Below, one piece after another: positions 1-42,031 of a DNA stretch of 42,198 nucleotides. Each line of letters begins with the position of its first letter. The first letter of the stretch is position 1. This DNA comes from SAR116 cluster bacterium (GTDB taxonomy: Bacteria > Pseudomonadota > Alphaproteobacteria > Puniceispirillales > Puniceispirillaceae). The notes beneath the pieces are model-generated. The model searched no databases and was not told the origin of the DNA. It saw only the letters and a program-made list of their open reading frames with translations. Position numbers and translations under genes: made by a program. Location: NCBI GenBank assembly GCA_004212735.1, contig SHBD01000012.1, positions 1 to 42,198 of the forward strand. Reading direction: 5' to 3'.

Positions 1-543
1 ATATCCCTGCGCTTTGGCCCATTTAATGACCATACGCAGCCTTTGGCGTATTTTCTTGGCAGTATCACTCTTCTCAACCCAGATCGGGCTGAGCACCCTT
101 AGAATGTCTGCTGAGGTAACTTCAGATATGGCTGTATCGCCAATCATGGGAAATACGTGGCGCTCGAGTGATGAGATCCATTGATCTGAATGTTTCTCAT
201 TCCTCCAGGAGGGAGCGTTCAAGGCATGTACCTTTAGTGCTGCATCTTTGACCGATACAAATAGGCCGCGACCCCTCTGACGCTCCTGAATGGGATCACC
301 ACCCTCTCTGGCAATCTTCCTGTATCTGCGGGCAAGGTCTCTTGCTTCCTCGAGATCAACCAGGCTGGCGCTGCCAAGCCCCATGTCGCGGCGCTTGCCA
401 CGTACAACGATTCTGAGCAGCCAGTGTTTTGCGCCGCTCGCACCAACAACCAGATAGAGACAGTTTCCATCTGGATACCGTCCTTTTGCATTGGCTTTTT
501 TGACTTTTAGTGCTGTCAGCCTGTTTGAACCACTTGAAGCCAT
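1..543 (-). CDS. Tyrosine-type site-specific integrase, 5' part (C-terminus beyond window)
   Basis: An open frame of 181 codons runs from an ATG at 543 off the left edge without a stop. The N-terminus (MASSGSNRLTALKVKKA, then GRYPDGNCLYLVV and RGKRRDMGLGS) has the pattern of the DUF4102 arm-DNA-binding domain of P4/CP4-57-like integrases. The following segment (about residues 95-181, containing WRNEKHSDQWISSLERHVFP and a run ending IKWAKAQGY) looks like the SAM-like core-binding domain. The catalytic domain with its Arg-His-Arg-Tyr residues would lie outside the window, so integrity cannot be judged. The start codon sits 149 bases past the 3' end of the tRNA-Ser gene. That is the usual arrangement for integrases that recombine into tRNA 3' ends, so this is probably the edge of a genomic island extending leftwards. 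Confidence 0.88.
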   Translation of the reverse strand, partial: MASSGSNRLTALKVKKANAKGRYPDGNCLYLVVGASGAKHWLLRIVVRGKRRDMGLGSASLVDLEEARDLARRYRKIAREGGDPIQERQRGRGLFVSVKDAALKVHALNAPSWRNEKHSDQWISSLERHVFPMIGDTAISEVTSADILRVLSPIWVEKSDTAKKIRQRLRMVIKWAKAQGY

Positions 544-692
544 ATACAACCCCACATTTACCCCCACATAATAGCGTGGATTGGGCTGGATGGGAATAGC
601 CACTTCATCACTTTAAAGCTAAGAAAATCTCATATAATCAGAGACAAAAAGCCATTAAAGCTAACAATCTGAAGATAAAAAATAAGGGAGTA

Positions 693-33874: not shown

Positions 33875-34627
33875 TCAGAACTGGACACCATCAACCCGCA
33901 TGGCATCAAGACTCTGCTCGATTATTGGCAGGCTGACGGCAAAATTAACCCCGGCGTCAATGTCCGCCTCTTTGGTGAAAATACCATCAATCATTCCAAC
34001 CAGTTGACCATCAGCGCGCACCAATGCTCCACCAGAAGCGCCGGGATTGACGGCGGCATCTGTCTGCACGAAATCTTCTATTTCGTTGAATCCAACATTG
34101 CTGCGTCCAGTGGCCGAGACAACACCACAAGTAAATGATATCCCGATACCGAACGCGTTGACCAAAGCACACACATGCGATCCGATTGGCAGATCTCTAT
34201 CAGCCAGTGTTATGGGCGAAAAAACCTGATCAACATGAAGCACGGCAACATCACGGCGTTGGTCAATGCTATGCAGCCGTGCCTGATACCGGCTTCCCTC
34301 TGCATCGACAACCTCAATATTCACGGCTTTAGCCACAACATGGGCTGCGGTCAGGATATAGCTGCCACTGCCCGCCCGCAGGGGGTAGACAATGCCCGTA
34401 CCTGCCGGGGCGACACCCGGGGGAGCGCCAAAGCCCGGACGCGCATAGCCCGGCCACGTTGGCTCAACAAGCAGAATCGACTGTCGGGCCGCCTGCCAGG
34501 TCTGCGGCCCGTGATCAGCAACAGCGGCAGAGCCTGAACTCATCAACAGTAAAATTGCGACACATAACGGGCGTAATAGGGCCGTGATACCTGCCATCGT
34601 GCTCTCACAGACGATCTTGGTGCGCAT
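33875..34627 (-). CDS. Exported trypsin-like serine protease (HtrA/S1C type, no PDZ)
   Basis: This 250-residue protein has an N-terminal signal or anchor (hydrophobic about residues 17-36) and a chymotrypsin-fold domain. The catalytic triad is His96 (ILTAAHVV), Asp126 (RRDVAVLHV) and Ser198 (NPGASGGALV). Cys153 and Cys167 could form a disulfide. There is no PDZ domain, so it is much shorter than DegP or DegQ. ATG 34627 is preceded by GAGGGG with an 8-base spacer; a frame open to 34666 adds no recognisable sequence. It lies downstream of the formate dehydrogenase genes on the same strand, with 96 bases to the 40-codon ORF. A role in quality control of that complex is a guess. Confidence 0.85.
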   Translation of the reverse strand: MRTKIVCESTMAGITALLRPLCVAILLLMSSGSAAVADHGPQTWQAARQSILLVEPTWPGYARPGFGAPPGVAPAGTGIVYPLRAGSGSYILTAAHVVAKAVNIEVVDAEGSRYQARLHSIDQRRDVAVLHVDQVFSPITLADRDLPIGSHVCALVNAFGIGISFTCGVVSATGRSNVGFNEIEDFVQTDAAVNPGASGGALVRADGQLVGMIDGIFTKEADIDAGVNFAVSLPIIEQSLDAMRVDGVQF

Positions 34628-34723
34628 ATTTGCTTCCCCTCGACCATTGGCTGGGACCAACCGCACGGAAACTCACCGATTTTGACGGTGAAATCCGACA
34701 AATCCGCAGGGGATTAAGGTCAG

Positions 34724-34846
34724 TTAAAGACGGACATTATCGCCGCTGTAGACCGATGCCGAGTCCATCCCCGTGCTGATCAACACATAATAGGCGACAA
34801 TGGCGATAATGACGGCAACACTGCCGCTAATCAGGACCATTTTCAT
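34724..34846 (-). CDS. 40-residue single-pass membrane peptide
   Basis: ATG at 34846 to TAA at 34724 gives 40 residues. The N-terminal half is a hydrophobic helix (about residues 3-24: VLISGSVAVIIAIVAYYVLI). The C-terminal half is polar (STGMDSASVYSGDNVRL). AGGGGG lies about 10 bases upstream of the ATG. The order of a membrane helix followed by a Ser/Gly/Asn-rich tail ending in VRL suggests a tail-out small envelope protein. I do not recognise an established family. It sits between the WD40-cytochrome c gene (51-base gap) and the protease gene, all on the same strand. Confidence 0.7.
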   Translation of the reverse strand: MKMVLISGSVAVIIAIVAYYVLISTGMDSASVYSGDNVRL

Positions 34847-34897
34847 AATTGCGATACCCCCTAATATACTTCGTTATACCACTGATCGATGACCGAC

Positions 34898-36280
34898 TCA
34901 ATCGGCAGGCGTCGTGGCCATTTTCAGGAAAGTTACCAGATCGCGTCTGTCCTGAGGATCTTTCATCCGCTGGATAGGCATTTTCGTGCCGGGTGTTACG
35001 ATATCAGGCCCTTCATCGAACAGGCGGCTGATTGTTGTCTCATCCCACACAATCTGTGATGTCAGCAATGCCTCGGAATAGGGATAGCCATCAAGCGTTC
35101 CTGCCTCTCTGCCAAAAACTCCGAACAATGTGGGGCCGGCACGGCGTTTGCCGTCCTTTTCAAGCGTATGGCAAACGCTGCATTTGCGGGCAAACTGCTT
35201 TTCTCCATTGGTCATCGCAACAGTCGGATGAAAACGACGTGGTTTCCCCGGTGATTCGAGAAATTCAGGTGGAAACTCAAAAATCGACCATTCGGTGATG
35301 TGATCATCGAGGCTCCCGATAACCAACGTATCCCCCTCGGGCATCACCAGCATGCTCCAGACAGGGCCATTTGCAGCCCGGAACTCACGGAAAACACTCC
35401 AATCCCGAGTGTCGGCAAGCATGATCCGACCCTTCGCCGTTCCAAAGCCGATCATATTGTCCGCCGCATTGTAATGCAGCGAAAGAACGGGAACACGCTC
35501 ATCACCAAAACGCAGCAATTCAGTTTGGTCCGAAAAGCGCACGACATACATGCCCCCATCGGCTGTCCCATAGGCGAGCATGTCACGCTCTTCATCAATC
35601 TCAAAAACGCTTACACCCCAGCCATTTCGCACAAGCGAACGCTGATACTCGCCAGTTGCCATGAGCCAACGCCGGATCGAACCATCATAGCCGGCGCTGT
35701 ATAAATGCTTCATGTCGTGCGAGAACTGCACCATGTTGACCGGGCCATCATGCCCGGTGATGAACCGGTCCAGAAGCGGCCCCTTGTTTCCCTGCATCTG
35801 CCAGAGACCTATCGAGCCATCCCAACTTGCGGACGCCAACTGGCTGCCGTCTGGCGCAAAGGACAGCCCCACCACCTTGCCTTTGTGTCCGGACAGAATC
35901 ATCGGTTCGGCATCATCTTTGTTGGCGGCGATATCAGCCATGTCCCACAACAGGATCAAGCCGTCATCACCAGCGGTTGCCAACAAAGCGCTATCAGGGG
36001 AAAAGGCAGCTACATTAACCGCCGCTTCATGACCAAAAAGCGTTGCTTGCGGCGCGATCTGGTCAGTTGACCACACTACGACGGTGTAATCGAAACTGGC
36101 ACTCACCATTGCCGAGTTGTCAGGGGCGATTGCCAACCCTTTTACCGGGCCGCCATGCGCCGTATAGGTCTGCATGGCAAACGCAGCAGGCGGACAGGAG
36201 ATGACCACTAGACAGGCTGCTAGGCACGCGCTCACAACCCACGAATAAAGCCCTCTATTGCCTTTTGACAACACTGACAT
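34898..36280 (-). CDS. Exported WD40 beta-propeller fused to a cytochrome c domain
   Basis: This 460-residue precursor has a signal peptide with likely cleavage after AFA at residue 35. Seven WD40-like repeats follow (residues about 38-335; e.g. LFGHEAAVNVAAFSPD, LSGHKGKVVGLSFAPD, ITGHDGPVNMVQFSHD), enough for one closed seven-bladed propeller. A C-terminal class I cytochrome c domain carries heme-binding Cys367, Cys370 and His371 (RKCSVCHTLEKDG) with likely axial Met434 (GTKMPIQRM). It starts 17 bases after the gamma-subunit stop, so it is probably part of the formate dehydrogenase operon. It could accept electrons from the cytochrome b or dock partners. That role is inferred. Confidence 0.9.
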   Translation of the reverse strand: MSVLSKGNRGLYSWVVSACLAACLVVISCPPAAFAMQTYTAHGGPVKGLAIAPDNSAMVSASFDYTVVVWSTDQIAPQATLFGHEAAVNVAAFSPDSALLATAGDDGLILLWDMADIAANKDDAEPMILSGHKGKVVGLSFAPDGSQLASASWDGSIGLWQMQGNKGPLLDRFITGHDGPVNMVQFSHDMKHLYSAGYDGSIRRWLMATGEYQRSLVRNGWGVSVFEIDEERDMLAYGTADGGMYVVRFSDQTELLRFGDERVPVLSLHYNAADNMIGFGTAKGRIMLADTRDWSVFREFRAANGPVWSMLVMPEGDTLVIGSLDDHITEWSIFEFPPEFLESPGKPRRFHPTVAMTNGEKQFARKCSVCHTLEKDGKRRAGPTLFGVFGREAGTLDGYPYSEALLTSQIVWDETTISRLFDEGPDIVTPGTKMPIQRMKDPQDRRDLVTFLKMATTPAD

Positions 36281-36297
36281 GACAAGCCAACAAACGC

Positions 36298-37359
36298 CTA
36301 TTCAGCGGGTGATGGCGAGCCCTTGGTTTTCTGCTGCTCTTCCTCGACCCAAAGATTATGATGCTCTTTGGCCCAGTTCAGATCAACTTCACCAGAATGC
36401 ATAGCGTCAATAGCGCCCTCCATACCGACAGAGCCGATGTAAATGTGTGCAACTATGATAACCATGAGAACTAGAGATACAACGCCATGCCATATTTGGT
36501 TGTATTGCTGTTCCTGAATCGGGGTCAGATCTGTTGGAAGATTGAGTCCCACTGCATTGAAAATCGCAAACGTATCCGCAAACATGGTTGTCTGAAAAGG
36601 AAACATTAGAGCAATGCCAGACAAACTAACCGACAAGCCTCCGACCATGGTCACCCAAAAAATAATCTTCTGACCAGCATTGAACTTTTTTGCTGGCGGA
36701 TGCACACCCTTTTTAAAGATGCCACCTCCCATACGCAACCATTGTAGATCAATTTTGGACGGAATATTGTGGCGAACCCACAAAAGAAAGGACAGACCAA
36801 GCCCAACCATAAAGGCAAAGGCGAGATAGTTGTGTGCATATTTGCCCCCCGTCGTGATGGCTGAAAAGACTTCAGGACCGACGATAGGAAGGATTATATA
36901 GCGACCGTATAACAGATTAAGTCCAGTCAGGCCGAGAACAACAAAAGAGCCCGCCATAAGCCAATGTGCAAAGCGGTCGATACTGCCAAAACGCAGAATG
37001 GTTTTGCCGGATGGCCCCTTCTCAATGCGGATTTTACCCCTGACCATGTAGAACATAGTCAGCAAAAACAGCATAATAAATAAACCGAAAGCTCCAATGT
37101 TTGATAGTGGGCCGTTCCGCAGAGCGCGCCAATTATCACCCTCGGACTGGATCATCACCGCTCCCAACTCGTCTTTCATCGACACGGAGCCGGCATTTCC
37201 AGTGCGCACAAAACGCCAAAGATCAGCGTCAGAATTAATACCGAGAGCCTGACCTGGCACTTCGCCACTCTGCTGGGCAATGGCGGCCGGAGCCAATAAA
37301 GCCATACCAGAAAAAAGGGTAACGATGACGGCGAAAGCTGCAAGAATTCTGCTGTACAT
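36298..37359 (-). CDS. Formate dehydrogenase gamma subunit (cytochrome b)
   Basis: This 353-residue membrane cytochrome b anchors the enzyme and passes electrons to quinone. A signal-like segment (1-28, ending AIAQQ) precedes about 55 periplasmic residues and an extra membrane segment (about 87-107), an extension absent from E. coli FdnI. The core four-helix part has candidate heme-b ligands His132 (FAHWLMAG), His176 (YAHNYLAF), His291 (QIWHGVVS) and His305 (VAHIYIG); the last two share the 14-residue spacing of FdnI. It lies 25 bases after the small exported protein gene and 17 before the WD40-cytochrome c gene. Confidence 0.93.
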   Translation of the reverse strand: MYSRILAAFAVIVTLFSGMALLAPAAIAQQSGEVPGQALGINSDADLWRFVRTGNAGSVSMKDELGAVMIQSEGDNWRALRNGPLSNIGAFGLFIMLFLLTMFYMVRGKIRIEKGPSGKTILRFGSIDRFAHWLMAGSFVVLGLTGLNLLYGRYIILPIVGPEVFSAITTGGKYAHNYLAFAFMVGLGLSFLLWVRHNIPSKIDLQWLRMGGGIFKKGVHPPAKKFNAGQKIIFWVTMVGGLSVSLSGIALMFPFQTTMFADTFAIFNAVGLNLPTDLTPIQEQQYNQIWHGVVSLVLMVIIVAHIYIGSVGMEGAIDAMHSGEVDLNWAKEHHNLWVEEEQQKTKGSPSPAE

Positions 37360-37384
37360 TTTAAAACCTCCCTGGCAAGCCAGA

Positions 37385-37585
37385 TTAATAATCGCTCTGC
37401 AACCGAGAACGGCTTGTTAGCCCTCTGAGCTGTTCACTATTCAAGGACGTATCAGATTTACCAAGATAGGTCCCTTTATCGTAATTGAGGGGTCGCCCCT
37501 GCTCCTCTTCCCGGCACGCAGACGTCCCAACGGCAACGGCCGTTATCGCCAGGATCAAAGCTGATTTTGTCACAATTTGACGCAT
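37385..37585 (-). CDS. Small exported Cys-containing protein of the formate dehydrogenase operon (possible lipoprotein)
   Basis: A 66-residue product starts MRQIVTKSALILAITAVAVG, followed by TSAC and a charged REEEQGRPLNYDKGTYLG segment. The Cys at residue 24 after a hydrophobic stretch suggests lipid attachment, although the -3 residue is Thr and the lipobox is weak. The rest is polar and includes SEQLRGLTSRSRLQSDY. Similar short proteins occur between beta and gamma genes of alphaproteobacterial formate dehydrogenase operons, to my recollection. Function is unknown. A GTG at 37600 would add five residues. Confidence 0.72.
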   Translation of the reverse strand: MRQIVTKSALILAITAVAVGTSACREEEQGRPLNYDKGTYLGKSDTSLNSEQLRGLTSRSRLQSDY

Positions 37586-37655
37586 GATAACCCCATTCAC
37601 TCACCACCCTCTGCCGCGCTGGTGGGGCTGGTTGTATAAATAAAGAAAGGCACGA

Positions 37656-37678
37656 AACCCCCGTCTTAAGCGGGAGTT
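37656..37678 (-). terminator. Intercistronic hairpin between formate dehydrogenase beta and the small exported protein
   Basis: On the minus strand AACTCCCG pairs with CGGGGGTT (8 bp, one G-T wobble) around a 7-base loop, followed by TCGTGCC and then T-rich sequence. It lies in the 111-base gap. It may partially terminate transcription or stabilise the upstream mRNA for the alpha and beta subunits. Confidence 0.5.
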
Positions 37679-37696
37679 CCGTACTGTTTTGATATG

Positions 37697-38287
37697 TTAG
37701 CTCTTGATTGAGTAGGCTGTACCCCATCCCCAAGCACCTGAGCCAAAGCCACGGGCAACCACACGCTCGCGGAAGATATTGGAGACCTGATCTCCATCAC
37801 CCGCCAGCAATGCCTTGGTAGAACACATCTCCGCACAGATTGGGAGCTTGCCTTCCGCAAGACGGTTACGACCGTACTTCTGGAACTCGGCATCAGAGAT
37901 GTCTTCCTCCGGACCACCGGCGCAGAAGGTACATTTGTCCATCTTGCCACGTGAGCCGTAGTTTCCAGCCTGTGGATATTGCGGCGCGCCAAACGGACAC
38001 GCATAAAAGCAGTAACCACAACCGATGCACAGATCTTTTGAGTGCAGCACCACACCCTGGTCGGTCTGATAGAAGCAATCTACCGGACAAACAGCCGTGC
38101 ATGGCGCATCAGAACAGTGCATACAAGCAACAGAGATTGAACGCTCTCCGGGCTTTCCATCCTGAATGGTGACCACGCGACGACGATTTACGCCCCAGGG
38201 AACCTCATGCTCATTTTTACATGCGGTAACGCAAGCATTACATTCGATACAGCGCTCTGCATCACAAAGAAATTTCATTCGTGCCAT
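37697..38287 (-). CDS. Formate dehydrogenase beta subunit (four Fe-S cluster ferredoxin)
   Basis: This 196-residue electron-transfer subunit has four cysteine groups for [4Fe-4S] clusters: CIECNACVTACKNEHEVPWG, CMHCSDAPCTAVCPVDC, CIGCGYCFYACPFGAP, and CTFCAGG pairing with CAEMC downstream. It wires the catalytic subunit to the cytochrome b. Unlike E. coli FdnH (about 290 residues) it has no C-terminal membrane helix. It carries no Tat signal, so it presumably travels to the periplasm bound to the alpha subunit. The ATG is 11 bases after the alpha stop. Confidence 0.94.
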   Translation of the reverse strand: MARMKFLCDAERCIECNACVTACKNEHEVPWGVNRRRVVTIQDGKPGERSISVACMHCSDAPCTAVCPVDCFYQTDQGVVLHSKDLCIGCGYCFYACPFGAPQYPQAGNYGSRGKMDKCTFCAGGPEEDISDAEFQKYGRNRLAEGKLPICAEMCSTKALLAGDGDQVSNIFRERVVARGFGSGAWGWGTAYSIKS

Positions 38288-38298
38288 TATTACCTCCC

Positions 38299-41190
38299 TT
38301 ATGCCCGCTCAATTTCACACAGGGAACACTTTGTTTCCTGCATTAATGTCACGGAGTCATAACCATATGTAAAAGCTGTGTTAGCTGCCTCACCAAGCAC
38401 GTAAGGATCTGCACCCTCTGGATACTTGGACCGAAGGTCTTTACCCTCCATATGTCCACCAAAGTGGAATGGCAGGAATGCAACACCCTTAGCAACTCGC
38501 TCAGTGACTTGCGCCATCACTTTAATACGTGCTCCTTCGGGGGTCATCACCCACACCATATCACCATCACGAATTTGCTTTGTGTTGGCGTCAAATGGGT
38601 TCATTTCAACAAACATATCCTGCTGAAGTTCTGCAAGCCATGGGTTGGAACGGGTTTCATCACCACCGCCTTCATACTCGACAAGCCTGCCAGACGTCAG
38701 GATCATAGGATATTCCTTTGAGTGATCCACATCCTGGATTGACTTGTAAAGTGTTGGCAGACGGTAGAGTTTCCGATCTGAATAGGTCGGATAGTCAGCG
38801 ACCAGATCACGACGTGAGGTATAAAGAGGCTCACGATGCAGCGGAATTGGATCCGGGAATGTCCAAACCTTCACCCGTGCCTTGGCATTACCAAACGGTG
38901 CACAACCATGCTTGATTGCAACCCGCTGGATACCTCCTGAAAGATCGACCTTCCAGTTGGTTTTGTCGCCAGCAACCGCGTCAATGGCCAACCGCTCATC
39001 TGCAGTCAGATCACCGTCCCAGCCGAGTTTCTTGAGCATACCCATGGTGAATTCCGGATAACCGTCCTTGATTTCCGATCCGACAGGGTATGAACCTTCG
39101 GCCAACAGATTGTTGCCCTCATGCTCAACGCCGAAACGGGCGCGGAAGCAAAGACCACCCTCAGCCACTGGCTTGGATGTGTCATACAGAAGTGGTGTGC
39201 CTGGGTGACCCATCTCTGGCGTTCCCCAGCAAGGCCAAGGCAGACCGTAATATTCACCATCAAGTTCACCACCAACAGCCTGTAGCGTTGTCTTATCGAA
39301 CAGGAACTGGTTGGCCATGTGAGCCTTAATCCGCTCAGGTGACTGGCCGGTGTAACCGATCGTCCACATGCCACCGTTAAATTCACGGGTCACATCTTCG
39401 ATCAGCGGCTCGTCATTTTCCACTTTAACCTTACGGAACATCCGATCGGCAAAGCCGAACTTTTTTGCGAACTTGTAGATGATGGTGTGGTCTGGCAACG
39501 AGTCGAATGACGGCTCGATAACCTTTTCACGCCACTGCAGCGAGCGGTTTGACGCAGTCAATGACCCATAGGTCTCGAACTGTGTCGTTGCTGGCAGCAG
39601 ATAGACGCCATCGCTACGGTCAGACAGCACCGCGGAAACTGTCGGATATGGATCGATCACGACCATTAGGTCGAGCTTCTCCATCGCCGTCTTCATTTCC
39701 TTCATGCGGGTCTGCGAGTTCGGGGCATGTCCCCAGAACACCATCGCCCGCAGATTATCCGGCTGATCAATGTTGTTCTTGTCCTCGAGAACACCATCAA
39801 TCCAGCGCGAAACGGGGATGCCTTTCAGGTTCATCAGGCTCTTATTCTTACCGTCAGATCCTTTGATTGAGGCAAATCGACTCTTCAACCAGTCAATATC
39901 CTCACCCCAAACACGAGCCCAGTGCTTCCACGCACCGGCTGACAAGCCGTAATAGCCGGGCAGTGAGTGTGAAAGGACACAGAAGTCGGTCGCGCCCTGA
40001 ACGTTACAGTGACCGCGGAAGATATTGGCACCACCACCGGAGGTTCCCATATTTCCAAGGGCAAGCTGCAACGCACAATAAGCGCGGGTGTTGTTGTTAC
40101 CGTTGGTATGCTGCGTTCCACCCATACACCAGATAAAAGTACCTGGACGGTTGTTAGCCATAATCATGGCAACACGCTTCAACTGTGATCCCGGGACGCC
40201 AGTGACGCGCTCGGTCTCTTCCGGAGTCCATCTCTTGACCTCGTCCATGACGTCTTCCATGCCATAAACGCGCTGGCGGATAAATTCCTTATCTTCCCAG
40301 CCATTTTCGAAGATGTGCCACATGATGCCCCAGATCAATCCAACGTCCGAGCCCGGGCGGAAGCGGACATATTCGTCAGCATGCGCTGCAGTCCGCGTAA
40401 AGCGGGGGTCACAAACAATCACCGGTGCATTGTTCTGCTCTTTGGCTTTCAACACATGCATCAGCGAAACAGGGTGCGCTTCTGCAGGGTTACCACCAAT
40501 GATAAAGATCGCACGTGAATTGTGGATATCATTGTAGGAGTTGGTCATCGCACCATAGCCCCAGGTGTTCGCGACACCGGCAACTGTGGTTGAGTGACAA
40601 ATACGGGCCTGGTGGTCCCCGTTGTTCGTGCCCCAATAGGCATAGAACTTACGGAACAGGTAGGCCTGCTCATTGTTGAACTTCGCTGAACCGAGCCAGT
40701 ACACAGAGTCAGGACCGGACTTTTCCCGAATATCCATCATCTTGTCGCCGATCTCATTGATCGCATCATCCCAGCTCATACGGGTCCATTTACCGCCAAC
40801 AAGCTTCATTGGATACTTCAAACGACGCTCGCCACTTGCTGTTTCCCGAACAGACGCACCTTTGGCGCAATGTGCACCAAGGTTGATTGGACTATCCCAA
40901 CCAGGCTCCTGACCTGTCCAAACGCCATTTTGCACCTCTGCGACAACGGTACAACCGACGGAGCAATGAGTACAAACTGACTTTTTGATTTGCGCAGCGG
41001 CAGATCCGCCCGCAGCCATGGCTGGCTTTACGCTTGGACCAACAAGGGCCGCAGCCGCAGCCAATCCACCGATCGCGATACCTGACCCACGCAAAAATGT
41101 GCGTCTGTCAACAACCGTTTCGACAGCTTGACCAAGAAAAGATGATGACTGGGGGCCTCTCGCAACCCCGGACGTCTTCTTTCTAAGCAT
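38299..41190 (-). CDS. fdhA: Formate dehydrogenase alpha subunit (molybdenum/tungsten bis-MGD, Tat-exported)
   Basis: This 963-residue catalytic subunit oxidises formate to CO2. A Tat signal (DRRTFLRGSG followed by a hydrophobic region, about residues 28-60) points to the periplasm. The N-terminal [4Fe-4S] ligands are Cys73, Cys76, Cys80 and Cys108. The metal-ligand position, selenocysteine in E. coli FdnG, is Cys198 here (ARICHSTTVAG) with His199 next to it, so no SECIS element is needed. The downstream GAMTNSYNDI motif and a C-terminal molybdopterin-dinucleotide-binding domain (LTSGRLVEYEGGG, NPFDANTKQIRDGDMVWV) are typical. GGGAGG precedes the ATG. Confidence 0.96.
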   Translation of the reverse strand: MLRKKTSGVARGPQSSSFLGQAVETVVDRRTFLRGSGIAIGGLAAAAALVGPSVKPAMAAGGSAAAQIKKSVCTHCSVGCTVVAEVQNGVWTGQEPGWDSPINLGAHCAKGASVRETASGERRLKYPMKLVGGKWTRMSWDDAINEIGDKMMDIREKSGPDSVYWLGSAKFNNEQAYLFRKFYAYWGTNNGDHQARICHSTTVAGVANTWGYGAMTNSYNDIHNSRAIFIIGGNPAEAHPVSLMHVLKAKEQNNAPVIVCDPRFTRTAAHADEYVRFRPGSDVGLIWGIMWHIFENGWEDKEFIRQRVYGMEDVMDEVKRWTPEETERVTGVPGSQLKRVAMIMANNRPGTFIWCMGGTQHTNGNNNTRAYCALQLALGNMGTSGGGANIFRGHCNVQGATDFCVLSHSLPGYYGLSAGAWKHWARVWGEDIDWLKSRFASIKGSDGKNKSLMNLKGIPVSRWIDGVLEDKNNIDQPDNLRAMVFWGHAPNSQTRMKEMKTAMEKLDLMVVIDPYPTVSAVLSDRSDGVYLLPATTQFETYGSLTASNRSLQWREKVIEPSFDSLPDHTIIYKFAKKFGFADRMFRKVKVENDEPLIEDVTREFNGGMWTIGYTGQSPERIKAHMANQFLFDKTTLQAVGGELDGEYYGLPWPCWGTPEMGHPGTPLLYDTSKPVAEGGLCFRARFGVEHEGNNLLAEGSYPVGSEIKDGYPEFTMGMLKKLGWDGDLTADERLAIDAVAGDKTNWKVDLSGGIQRVAIKHGCAPFGNAKARVKVWTFPDPIPLHREPLYTSRRDLVADYPTYSDRKLYRLPTLYKSIQDVDHSKEYPMILTSGRLVEYEGGGDETRSNPWLAELQQDMFVEMNPFDANTKQIRDGDMVWVMTPEGARIKVMAQVTERVAKGVAFLPFHFGGHMEGKDLRSKYPEGADPYVLGEAANTAFTYGYDSVTLMQETKCSLCEIERA

Positions 41191-41238
41191 GTGTTTCCTC
41201 CCACATATAAGTATTCATAAAACTAAAATTCGCTTCAA

Positions 41239-41436
41239 CTAAAACCGCGCAAGGTCATAAAATGTCTTGACGTGGTCGGTCAGACGGTAGCCAGCACCTT
41301 CGGGTGCTTCGACCGTCTCAGCAGAAGCCGCTTTTCCGACCAGCATCGCACCCCCTGCAGCGGCTGCACCAGTCGCAGACAACTTCAAGAAATCACGACG
41401 GCCAGATTGCTTTACTTCACCATTTTCACTCTTCAT
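41239..41436 (-). CDS. Small Tat-signal protein of the formate dehydrogenase region
   Basis: This 65-residue protein begins MKSENGEVKQSGRRDFLKLS, a clear twin-arginine motif (RRDFLK), followed by an alanine/glycine-rich hydrophobic stretch and a short tail with YRLTDHVKTFYDLARF. It matches the 'formate dehydrogenase region Tat target' type of protein found in such operons; its role is not established. GGGAGG lies about 6 bases before ATG 41436. An in-frame start at 41490 would overlap torD and is less likely. It lies 48 bases upstream of fdhA. Confidence 0.88.
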   Translation of the reverse strand: MKSENGEVKQSGRRDFLKLSATGAAAAGGAMLVGKAASAETVEAPEGAGYRLTDHVKTFYDLARF

Positions 41437-41482
41437 TTTTACCTCCCTGTTTATCTCAACATTGAGACCATTTAACCGCACG

Positions 41483-42031
41483 CTACTCATGTCCGGTCAA
41501 ATCCATTTCGAAAGCCTTGCTTTCGATTTCCAAAAACACCCGTCCCATGGTTCCAACTGGCGCGTAAAAGATGGCGGTCTTGGCCTCTTCTACATCGCGC
41601 ATCAGCAACTGGCCCCACGGATGGATGTGCTTTGCAAAAAATGTACCTTGTTCTGCCACACTGTAGACGCGCCCGAAATCTCCGCGTATCAACCCGGACA
41701 TGATGTCAAACAAACTTGCAATGTGGTCCTCCGGCTCGCGCACGCCCTCGGCGCGTTTGATCCCAATCGCGTCCATCTCACCACGCAAATTGGCGAGCGG
41801 TCTGTCGTTCAAAAAACCTGTCAGATAGTAGCTGGCGAAAGGCAGCACTTCGCCTCGCCCTACGCCGACGAACAACTCGACATACTCGTTGCGAATCATT
41901 CCATTATCCAAAGAGCCCGCCAATTTGGCCGGTTCGGAGCGCAACAAAGAGGCAAGAAAGCCATACATGTCGGCCCTCAAACTATCTTCTTCGCCATCGT
42001 CAATGCCCAGATTTGCTGCTTCTAAATTCAT
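41483..42031 (-). CDS. TorD/DmsD-family molybdoenzyme chaperone
   Basis: This 182-residue redox-enzyme maturation protein probably binds the Tat signal of the alpha subunit and delays export until the cofactor is inserted. The family motif is REPEDHIASLFDIMSGL (about residues 98-114). NEYVELFVGVGRGEVLPFASYYL matches the central substrate-binding region. The segment before it (SEPAKLAGSLDNGMIRNEY) appears shorter than usual, giving a compact protein. It is the first gene of the operon in the window, with 167 bases to the right edge that contain putative regulatory sites. Confidence 0.88.
   Translation of the reverse strand: MNLEAANLGIDDGEEDSLRADMYGFLASLLRSEPAKLAGSLDNGMIRNEYVELFVGVGRGEVLPFASYYLTGFLNDRPLANLRGEMDAIGIKRAEGVREPEDHIASLFDIMSGLIRGDFGRVYSVAEQGTFFAKHIHPWGQLLMRDVEEAKTAIFYAPVGTMGRVFLEIESKAFEMDLTGHE

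What the first reader, a model, noticed from the sequence alone, without database searches (positions are those of the whole stretch)
33875..42031. Extended formate dehydrogenase locus with a WD40-cytochrome c fusion and accessory envelope proteins
Seven core genes on one strand are tightly packed (gaps mostly 11-50 bases): chaperone, Tat-signal protein, alpha, beta, small Cys protein, gamma, then a seven-repeat WD40 propeller joined to a CxxCH cytochrome c. A 40-residue membrane peptide and a PDZ-less protease follow. The fusion suggests that formate electrons may leave via a periplasmic cytochrome c besides, or instead of, quinone, with the propeller as docking surface. Gene order and motifs are seen; electron routing is inferred.
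Basis: partly seen in the sequence, partly recalled or inferred. Interest (0 to 1): 0.55.

Follow-up and report, generated by a model that had tools for sequence, protein, structure and literature searches.

The report
Formate dehydrogenase with propeller-cytochrome c module
A marine bacterium's gene cluster for burning formate carries an extra module (a propeller protein fused to a cytochrome c, plus a tiny membrane peptide) that travels with this enzyme across many related bacteria and may give its electrons a second way out.

Summary
Window 33875-42031 (- strand, SAR116-clade relatives) encodes an FDH3-type periplasmic formate dehydrogenase (TorD-like chaperone, Tat peptide, alpha, beta, lipoprotein, gamma), then a seven-bladed WD40 propeller fused to a one-haem cytochrome c, a 40-aa membrane peptide and a PDZ-less trypsin-like protease.

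The fusion is a real FDH3 partner. Gamma lies directly upstream in 74 of 80 database loci. The five stand-alone fusion genes all sit in genomes with FDH3. Of 39 fusion-carrying genomes among 387 Alphaproteobacteria, 38 have FDH3 beta. In seven FDH3 loci propeller and cytochrome are separate neighbouring genes, which supports a joint function. The 40-aa peptide belongs to an unannotated microprotein family found in 39 of 55 further alphaproteobacterial FDH3 loci and in 0 of 5 stand-alone fusion loci.

'Instead of quinone' is not supported: gamma keeps its four haem-b histidines and quinone-site residues with or without the fusion. In many SAR116 relatives, though not in the window, a hairpin separates gamma from the fusion, so one even transcript is doubtful.

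Best explanation: a docked c-type electron acceptor beside the quinone route. Association is shown; routing is inferred. My paper searches found nothing on it. New variant of a known kind.

The parts
41483..42031 (-). TorD-like chaperone (182 aa), probably proofreads and folds FDH alpha (inferred)
   Evidence: Pfam Nitrate_red_del 9.2e-25; overlaps the next gene by 8 bases
41239..41490 (-). small Tat-signal protein (83 aa), 'formate dehydrogenase region TAT target'
   Evidence: TIGR02811 50.1 bits against cut-off 48.45; twin-arginine RRDFLK
38299..41190 (-). FDH alpha (963 aa), Cys-type (Cys198), Tat-like signal, one Fe4S4 domain
   Evidence: Pfam Molybdopterin 2.4e-48 and Molybdop_Fe4S4; phmmer 1403 bits to 9vap_A, named SoFdhAB of Shewanella in PMC13397495; Cys198 in ARICHST
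37697..38287 (-). FDH3 beta (196 aa), ferredoxin-like [4Fe-4S] protein with 18 Cys, no C-terminal membrane tail
   Evidence: NF038355 342.6 bits against 240; 332 bits to 9vap_B; 18 Cys; C-terminal hydropathy at most 0.96 in 66 homologues
37650..37684 (-). terminator-like hairpin (14 bp, U-rich tail) directly after beta
   Evidence: conserved in place, not in sequence, in SAR116-like loci
37385..37600 (-). small lipoprotein-like protein (conserved KGxYxGxxD motif)
   Evidence: aligned Cys in 24 of 24 homologues; no Pfam/NCBIfam match
36298..37359 (-). FDH gamma (353 aa), di-haem cytochrome b with an extra N-terminal region and one extra long helix
   Evidence: TIGR01583 140.7 bits; aligns to 1kqf_C; H132, H176, H291, H305 invariant in 63 of 63; model
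34898..36280 (-). seven-bladed WD40 propeller with N-terminal hydrophobic segment, fused to a class I mono-haem cytochrome c (460 aa; CSVCH at 367-371, Met434)
   Evidence: one CxxCH in 80 of 80 homologues
34724..34846 (-). 40-aa single-membrane-helix microprotein ('pep40'), member of a family found in FDH3 clusters
   Evidence: 67 of 79 loci by a simple rule; HMM counts
33875..34666 (-). trypsin-like serine protease without PDZ, start GTG 34666 or ATG near 34627
   Evidence: Pfam Trypsin_2 3.5e-23; H109/D139/S211 invariant in 31 of 31 homologues

Best explanation
This is the gene cluster of an FDH3-type periplasmic, quinone-linked formate dehydrogenase with an alphaproteobacterial accessory module. 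Shown: the WD40-cytochrome c protein and the 40-aa membrane peptide are evolutionarily tied to this enzyme, and propeller and cytochrome occur fused or as separate neighbouring genes, which suggests one functional unit. Inferred: formate is oxidised by exported alpha-beta; electrons run through the [4Fe-4S] chain to the two b haems of gamma and reduce quinone. The propeller docks on the periplasmic face of the complex and holds a c550-like haem where it can take electrons from the beta/gamma relay and hand them to the periplasmic c-type pool and terminal oxidase: a second outlet beside quinone, useful when the quinone pool is over-reduced. The 40-aa peptide is a small membrane subunit that helps hold the cytochrome or gamma in place.
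For: Gamma directly upstream in 74 of 80 loci. The 5 loci with the fusion away from FDH genes, plus L098, lie in genomes that all carry FDH3 beta above cut-off (6 of 6). In 387 Alphaproteobacteria, 38 of 39 fusion-carrying genomes have FDH3 beta against 23 of 348 others (recounted; Fisher 2.2e-35, ancestry ignored); the 39th (G473) shows gamma and 44 aa of beta at a contig end. In 101 relatives, 37 of 37 FDH3+ genomes have the fusion. Split form: a WD40-only gene plus a separate cytochrome c matching the fusion's haem domain (89-138 bits) in 7 loci. CxxCH in 80 of 80. The haem domain's best NCBIfam hit is cytochrome c-550 CycA, below cut-off. pep40 follows the cytochrome c gene on the same strand in 7 of 7 split loci. 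Quinone machinery intact.
Against: No electron transfer was or could be measured. FDH3 exists without the module: 0 of 20 non-alphaproteobacterial loci and 0 of 14 such genomes searched whole have it, and by my tally 10 of 61 alphaproteobacterial FDH3+ genomes lack it, so it is not needed for formate oxidation. No gamma column separates clusters with and without the fusion, so no docking signature was found. In many SAR116 relatives a hairpin separates gamma from the fusion, so it may be made at another level than the enzyme. A His/Met haem (high potential, general knowledge) would waste much of formate's energy. Operon neighbours can be maturation factors.
Confidence: 0.52

Rival explanations
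1. The propeller-cytochrome c protein is a maturation, assembly or redox-sensing factor of FDH3. It binds the complex during export or membrane assembly, and its haem reports the state of the c pool or of oxygen; it is not on the electron path.
For: The cluster holds maturation-type genes (TorD-like, Tat peptide; DUF3305/3306 in many relatives) and ends in a protease. Many FDH3 clusters do without the fusion. A hairpin before the fusion gene in many SAR116 relatives would fit a protein needed in smaller amounts. WD40 propellers are typical scaffolds (general knowledge).
Against: The haem motif is kept in 80 of 80, and in split loci the cytochrome is a separate c550-like protein with a signal-like N-terminus, which looks like a carrier. 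The module was not found in non-alphaproteobacterial FDH3, so assembly does not generally need it.
Confidence: 0.27
2. The cytochrome works downstream only: it takes electrons from the quinol/bc1 branch near the complex (a tethered c550 that links FDH3 to bc1 and oxidase), without direct contact with the FDH Fe-S or b haems.
For: The haem domain is c550-like; gamma keeps its quinone site, so the classical route through quinol is open.
Against: I recognised no bc1 gene by eye beside the window cluster or in the five annotated plasmid loci; the constant neighbour is gamma.
Confidence: 0.15
3. Hitch-hiker: the fusion is only a neighbour and has an unrelated function.
For: Operon partners are often inherited together by linkage.
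Against: The association persists where the genes are unlinked (6 of 6 genomes; about 86 kb and 253 kb from FDH3 beta on one contig in G134 and G398), and 37 of 37 FDH3+ relatives carry it.
Confidence: 0.03

Closest known systems
Escherichia coli formate dehydrogenase-N (FdnGHI, PDB 1KQF)
   Same: molybdopterin alpha with Tat signal, ferredoxin-like beta, gamma with four haem His and the aligned N/G residues
   Different: FDH-N beta carries a C-terminal membrane tail (PMC10924467, passages read); here beta has none (66 homologues) and gamma has an extra N-terminal region and helix; the window alpha is Cys-type; I know of no WD40-cytochrome c or 40-aa peptide in FDH-N (recalled)
FDH3 family (NCBIfam NF038355); Shewanella oneidensis SoFdhAB (PDB 9VAP)
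   Same: alpha 1403 bits and beta 332 bits by phmmer; SoFdhAB is a Cys-ligated, oxygen-tolerant W enzyme (PMC13397495 section 13)
Desulfovibrio FdhABC3 (FDH with tetrahaem cytochrome c subunit)
   Same: a formate dehydrogenase with its own c-type cytochrome subunit (PMC13397495, passages read)
   Different: four haems and no integral membrane subunit there; one class I haem on a WD40 propeller plus an intact quinone-type gamma here
Soluble cytochrome c550 (CycA, NF043008)
   Same: haem domain aligns (55.8 bits)
   Different: below the family cut-off of 240; fused to a propeller

Membership tests
FDH3-type formate dehydrogenase | beta above the NF038355 curated cut-off (240 bits) | tested here: met
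   342.6 bits
FDH3-type formate dehydrogenase | molybdopterin alpha with active-site Sec/Cys and Tat signal | tested here: met
   Pfam Molybdopterin; Cys198; twin-arginine RRTFLRG in the translation. TIGR01591 and TIGR01553 match below their cut-offs
FDH3-type formate dehydrogenase | formate oxidation activity | not testable with these tools
   no biochemistry available
Quinone-linked di-haem b gamma (TIGR01583) | score above 115.85 and four haem-ligand His | tested here: met
   140.7 bits; H132/H176/H291/H305 invariant in 63 of 63
Quinone-linked di-haem b gamma (TIGR01583) | residues aligned to FdnI N110/G112 (quinone-analogue site, recalled) | tested here: met
   N227, G229 invariant in 35 + 13 + 18 sequences
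E. coli FDH-N proper | beta with C-terminal membrane tail | tested here: not met
   196-aa beta; maximum 17-aa hydropathy 0.96 over 66 homologues
WD40 propeller | seven four-stranded blades | tested here: met
   28 strands in the model; Foldseek top hit 5yzv_B
Class I mono-haem cytochrome c | CxxCH and a downstream Met ligand | tested here: met
   C367/C370/H371 and M434 invariant in 68; the Met motif was also a search seed, so its conservation is partly by selection
Class I mono-haem cytochrome c | covalent haem and its redox potential | not testable with these tools
   needs purified protein
DegP/HtrA protease | PDZ domain after the trypsin-like domain | tested here: not met
   no PDZ match; TIGR02037 133.1 against cut-off 416.2
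Formate dehydrogenase region TAT target (TIGR02811) | score above 48.45 | tested here: met
   50.1 bits

The most novel reading that the evidence does not exclude
Alphaproteobacterial FDH3 is a dual-exit respiratory complex with two undescribed parts: a WD40-held cytochrome c that lets formate electrons bypass quinone and bc1 and reach the cytochrome c pool and oxidase directly, and a ~40-aa single-helix microprotein subunit. It would act as an overflow valve for periplasmic formate oxidation in marine clades such as SAR116 and the Roseobacter group.
Probability: 0.33. Interest if true: 0.72.

Novelty: new variant of a known kind. Interest (0 to 1): 0.52.

Why it matters
Formate dehydrogenase-N is the textbook proton-motive redox loop. 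If a common alphaproteobacterial version has a second, cytochrome c outlet and a hidden microprotein subunit, energy yields assumed for formate and C1 oxidation in marine bacteria need revision, and oxygen-tolerant FDHs studied for CO2 reduction gain a natural cytochrome partner. The split and fused gene forms make docking directly testable.

Tried and rejected
Looked for a gamma-WD40 fusion protein in L107-L146: none seen; the long ORFs in L109, L112, L141 and L145 only overlap gamma in another frame. Looked for gamma positions that separate clusters with and without the fusion: none at the chosen limits. Asked whether PQQ genes recur beside the cluster, as in Tateyamaria L016: 0 of 161 loci. 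One search scored only 4 candidates per genome and so undercounts; 20 of its 23 FDH3+ 'negatives' were fetched and read again (G107, G429 and G478 were not fetched). Complexes cannot be modelled here (single chains only). In the top 50 Foldseek rows no alignment is longer than 377 columns, so none covers propeller and cytochrome together.

Literature: ten searches, seen as listings with starts of abstracts. Several lists were capped (25: 30 of 814; 44: 12 of 28; 77: 8 of 36; 80: 10 of 23). None of the papers listed was about a WD40-cytochrome c with formate dehydrogenase. Passages were read in PMC13397495 (with its section 13) and PMC10924467 only. Subscription papers are mostly not held.

Limits. 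The co-occurrence p-value ignores shared ancestry. The pep40 HMM was trained on 56 sequences from the first two locus groups; the L107-L186 counts are the better test but are not wholly independent (the pep40 of L135 and L136 are identical to those of L066 and L067). In the tree, 'fused' includes genomes whose fusion gene lies elsewhere; its counts do not tell gain from loss. The hairpin shuffles keep dinucleotides only approximately. My assumed start codons of the fusion in several relatives lie upstream of the hairpin after gamma and may be wrong.
Full report
OBSERVATION. Gaps are -8, 48, 11, 96, 25, 17, 51 and 57 bases. The nearest named relatives are SAR116-clade genomes; L021, 89% identical in the fusion protein, is AG-911-J17. 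The fusion protein is predicted with high confidence as a seven-bladed propeller (28 strands) plus a helical cytochrome c domain (mean pLDDT 90.6).

ENZYME TYPE. Beta passes the curated FDH3_beta cut-off, and alpha is Cys-type with a twin-arginine signal. The nearest solved structure by sequence is 9vap (alpha 1403 bits, beta 332 bits), given in a 2026 review as the oxygen-tolerant Cys-W enzyme SoFdhAB of Shewanella oneidensis (PMC13397495, passages and section 13 read). Gamma matches E. coli FdnI by sequence and fold. Its four haem-ligand His are invariant in 63 of 63 gammas. They, with N227 and G229 (aligned to FdnI N110 and G112, which I recall as quinone-site residues), are unchanged in 35 gammas of clusters with the fusion, 13 without it nearby and 18 from outside the class (one of the 13, L150, is also from outside the class). 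The classical quinone route therefore looks intact.

THE FUSION TRAVELS WITH FDH3. Gamma is directly upstream on the same strand in 74 of 80 (within 480 bases). One is cut by a contig end (L041). Five stand apart: L050, L051, L078, L081, L096. The genomes of these five and of L098 (gamma but no alpha or beta nearby) all hold FDH3 beta above cut-off (6 of 6). In 387 alphaproteobacterial genomes (drawn by the tool, at least 90% complete), FDH3 beta is in 61 and the fusion model hits 39; 38 are shared (Fisher 2.2e-35, ignoring ancestry). The one exception, G473, shows gamma and 44 aa of beta at a contig end. In 101 near relatives, FDH3 beta is in 37 and all 37 have the fusion. The fusion (E <= 1e-70) is in 43; of the six without FDH3 beta (G026, G032, G042, G074, G077, G084), all but G042 have the fusion or gamma at or close to a contig end. 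G060 has a short fragment only. Annotated plasmid records agree: Sagittula and Sulfitobacter carry alpha, fdh3B, gamma, 'c-type cytochrome' and a short hypothetical protein in this order; in Sinorhizobium and Bradyrhizobium a diverged copy lies upstream of the same cluster.

SPLIT FORMS. I fetched 20 FDH3 loci from the 23 genomes that seemed to lack the fusion, and 20 more stretches. In seven loci (L111, L112, L115, L116, L118, L124, L145) the two domains are separate neighbouring genes: a WD40-only protein (248-284 bits to the propeller model) and a small cytochrome c (89-138 bits to the haem model). L107, L119 and L126 have the propeller alone near FDH3; the genomes of the last two hold a matching cytochrome elsewhere. 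L109 is a full fusion that one search missed. L121 is a decayed copy without CxxCH. L108, L110, L113, L114, L117, L120, L122 and L125 show none nearby, and L123 is cut short. My tally for the 61 FDH3+ genomes is: fused 38 (full-length matches, not all read one by one; G195 and G263 were flagged with a stop inside the frame), split 8 (seven read, G478 assumed from its genus), propeller alone 3, decayed 1, in pieces 1 (G296), none found 10, of which G233 and G367 hold weak propeller hits elsewhere. Outside the class, 0 of 20 FDH3 loci and 0 of 14 genomes searched whole have it, though L052 (titled Gammaproteobacteria) and L050 (titled Litoricola) carry copies. On a tree of 87 alpha subunits the label 'fused' needs 11 changes against 27.2 in shuffles.

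THE 40-AA PEPTIDE. A 40-50 aa one-helix ORF follows the fusion in 67 of 79 loci with enough sequence; in 27 of the 67 it starts 4 bases before the end of the fusion gene. An HMM of 56 such sequences, run over 2.5 Mb in six frames, hits (15 bits or more, within 1.5 kb of the FDH or WD40 genes) in 27 of 27 SAR116-like loci and 48 of 48 other fusion+gamma loci (mostly training data), in 0 of 5 stand-alone fusion loci, in 39 of 55 other alphaproteobacterial FDH3 loci (30 at 20 bits or more) and in 1 of 20 outside the class. Six further hits lie 1.9-4.0 kb from those genes; there is no other besides the window's own. It occurs right after gamma where no fusion is near (L113, L114, L172, L173, L183, L184, L185; the genome of L183 has a fusion elsewhere), so it belongs to FDH3 and not to the fusion alone. 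In 7 of 7 split loci it follows the cytochrome gene on the same strand. The window peptide has no Pfam or NCBIfam match. FDH-N beta has a C-terminal membrane tail (PMC10924467, passages read) and FDH3 beta has none. The peptide could replace this tail, but 19 of 20 FDH3 loci outside the class lack the peptide as well, and gamma's own extra helix is the likelier substitute.

TRANSCRIPT STRUCTURE. A hairpin with a U-rich tail follows the beta stop codon in the window. In the window and 22 of 22 SAR116-like loci the 100 bases after beta fold better than all 20 shuffles; so do 33 of 44 other fusion loci, 35 of 56 further alphaproteobacterial stretches and 5 of 20 outside. A repeat with fresh shuffles on the window and SAR116-like loci gave 21 of 23 after beta, 21 of 27 after gamma, 3 of 22 after alpha and 0 of 28 after the fusion. 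The sequences differ but the place is the same. So a second hairpin often lies between gamma and the fusion in SAR116 relatives, yet not in the window, L021 or L022, where the best folds are -12 to -13 kcal/mol. This counts against one evenly transcribed operon. It may set steps in amount, alpha-beta over gamma over fusion (inference).

MECHANISM. Shown: evolutionary tie, domain architecture, haem motif in 80 of 80, intact quinone-type gamma. Inferred: docking, electron transfer, destination. The haem domain resembles c550, a carrier between bc1 and oxidase (general knowledge), so I favour a docked c-type acceptor that works beside quinone. The maturation or sensor rival stays open.

VERDICT. 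A real and widespread extension of a known enzyme family, not described in any paper my ten searches listed.

Noticed in passing
34724-34846 (-): Unannotated ~40-aa single-helix microprotein family that tracks alphaproteobacterial FDH3 clusters, also where the WD40-cytochrome c is absent.
   Followed up: yes
37650-37684 (-); L023-L030 and L042-L043 after gamma: Hairpins conserved in position but not in sequence after beta, and in many SAR116 relatives also between gamma and the fusion gene.
   Followed up: partly
37385-37600 (-): Small lipoprotein-like gene with conserved KGxYxGxxD motif in SAR116-like FDH3 clusters and a few others (L090, L119, L126, L143, L174).
   Followed up: partly
L121:5738-6409: Decayed WD40-cytochrome c copy next to an FDH3 cluster; its haem motif is lost.
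   Followed up: no
L016 (Tateyamaria plasmid): FDH3 cluster with pqqA, C, D and E annotated downstream; gamma and the WD40-cytochrome c are not in the record's gene table and the fusion matches in two pieces, so it may be broken.
   Followed up: partly
L061: Record titled Oceanobacillus (a Bacillota genus, recalled) carries an alphaproteobacterial-type FDH3/WD40c cluster; probably contamination or a wrong label.
   Followed up: no
L050, L052, L090: The same kind of protease follows the WD40-cytochrome c outside SAR116, in L050 even where no FDH gene is near.
   Followed up: partly
161 FDH3/WD40c loci: DUF3305 (73 of 161 loci), a 4Fe-4S protein (62), DUF3306 (47) and ABC transporter genes like those beside the S. 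meliloti cluster (ATPase 26) recur in the stretches.
   Followed up: partly
1-603 (-): ORF at the window's left edge looks like the N-terminal part of an integrase (by eye, from recall).
   Followed up: no
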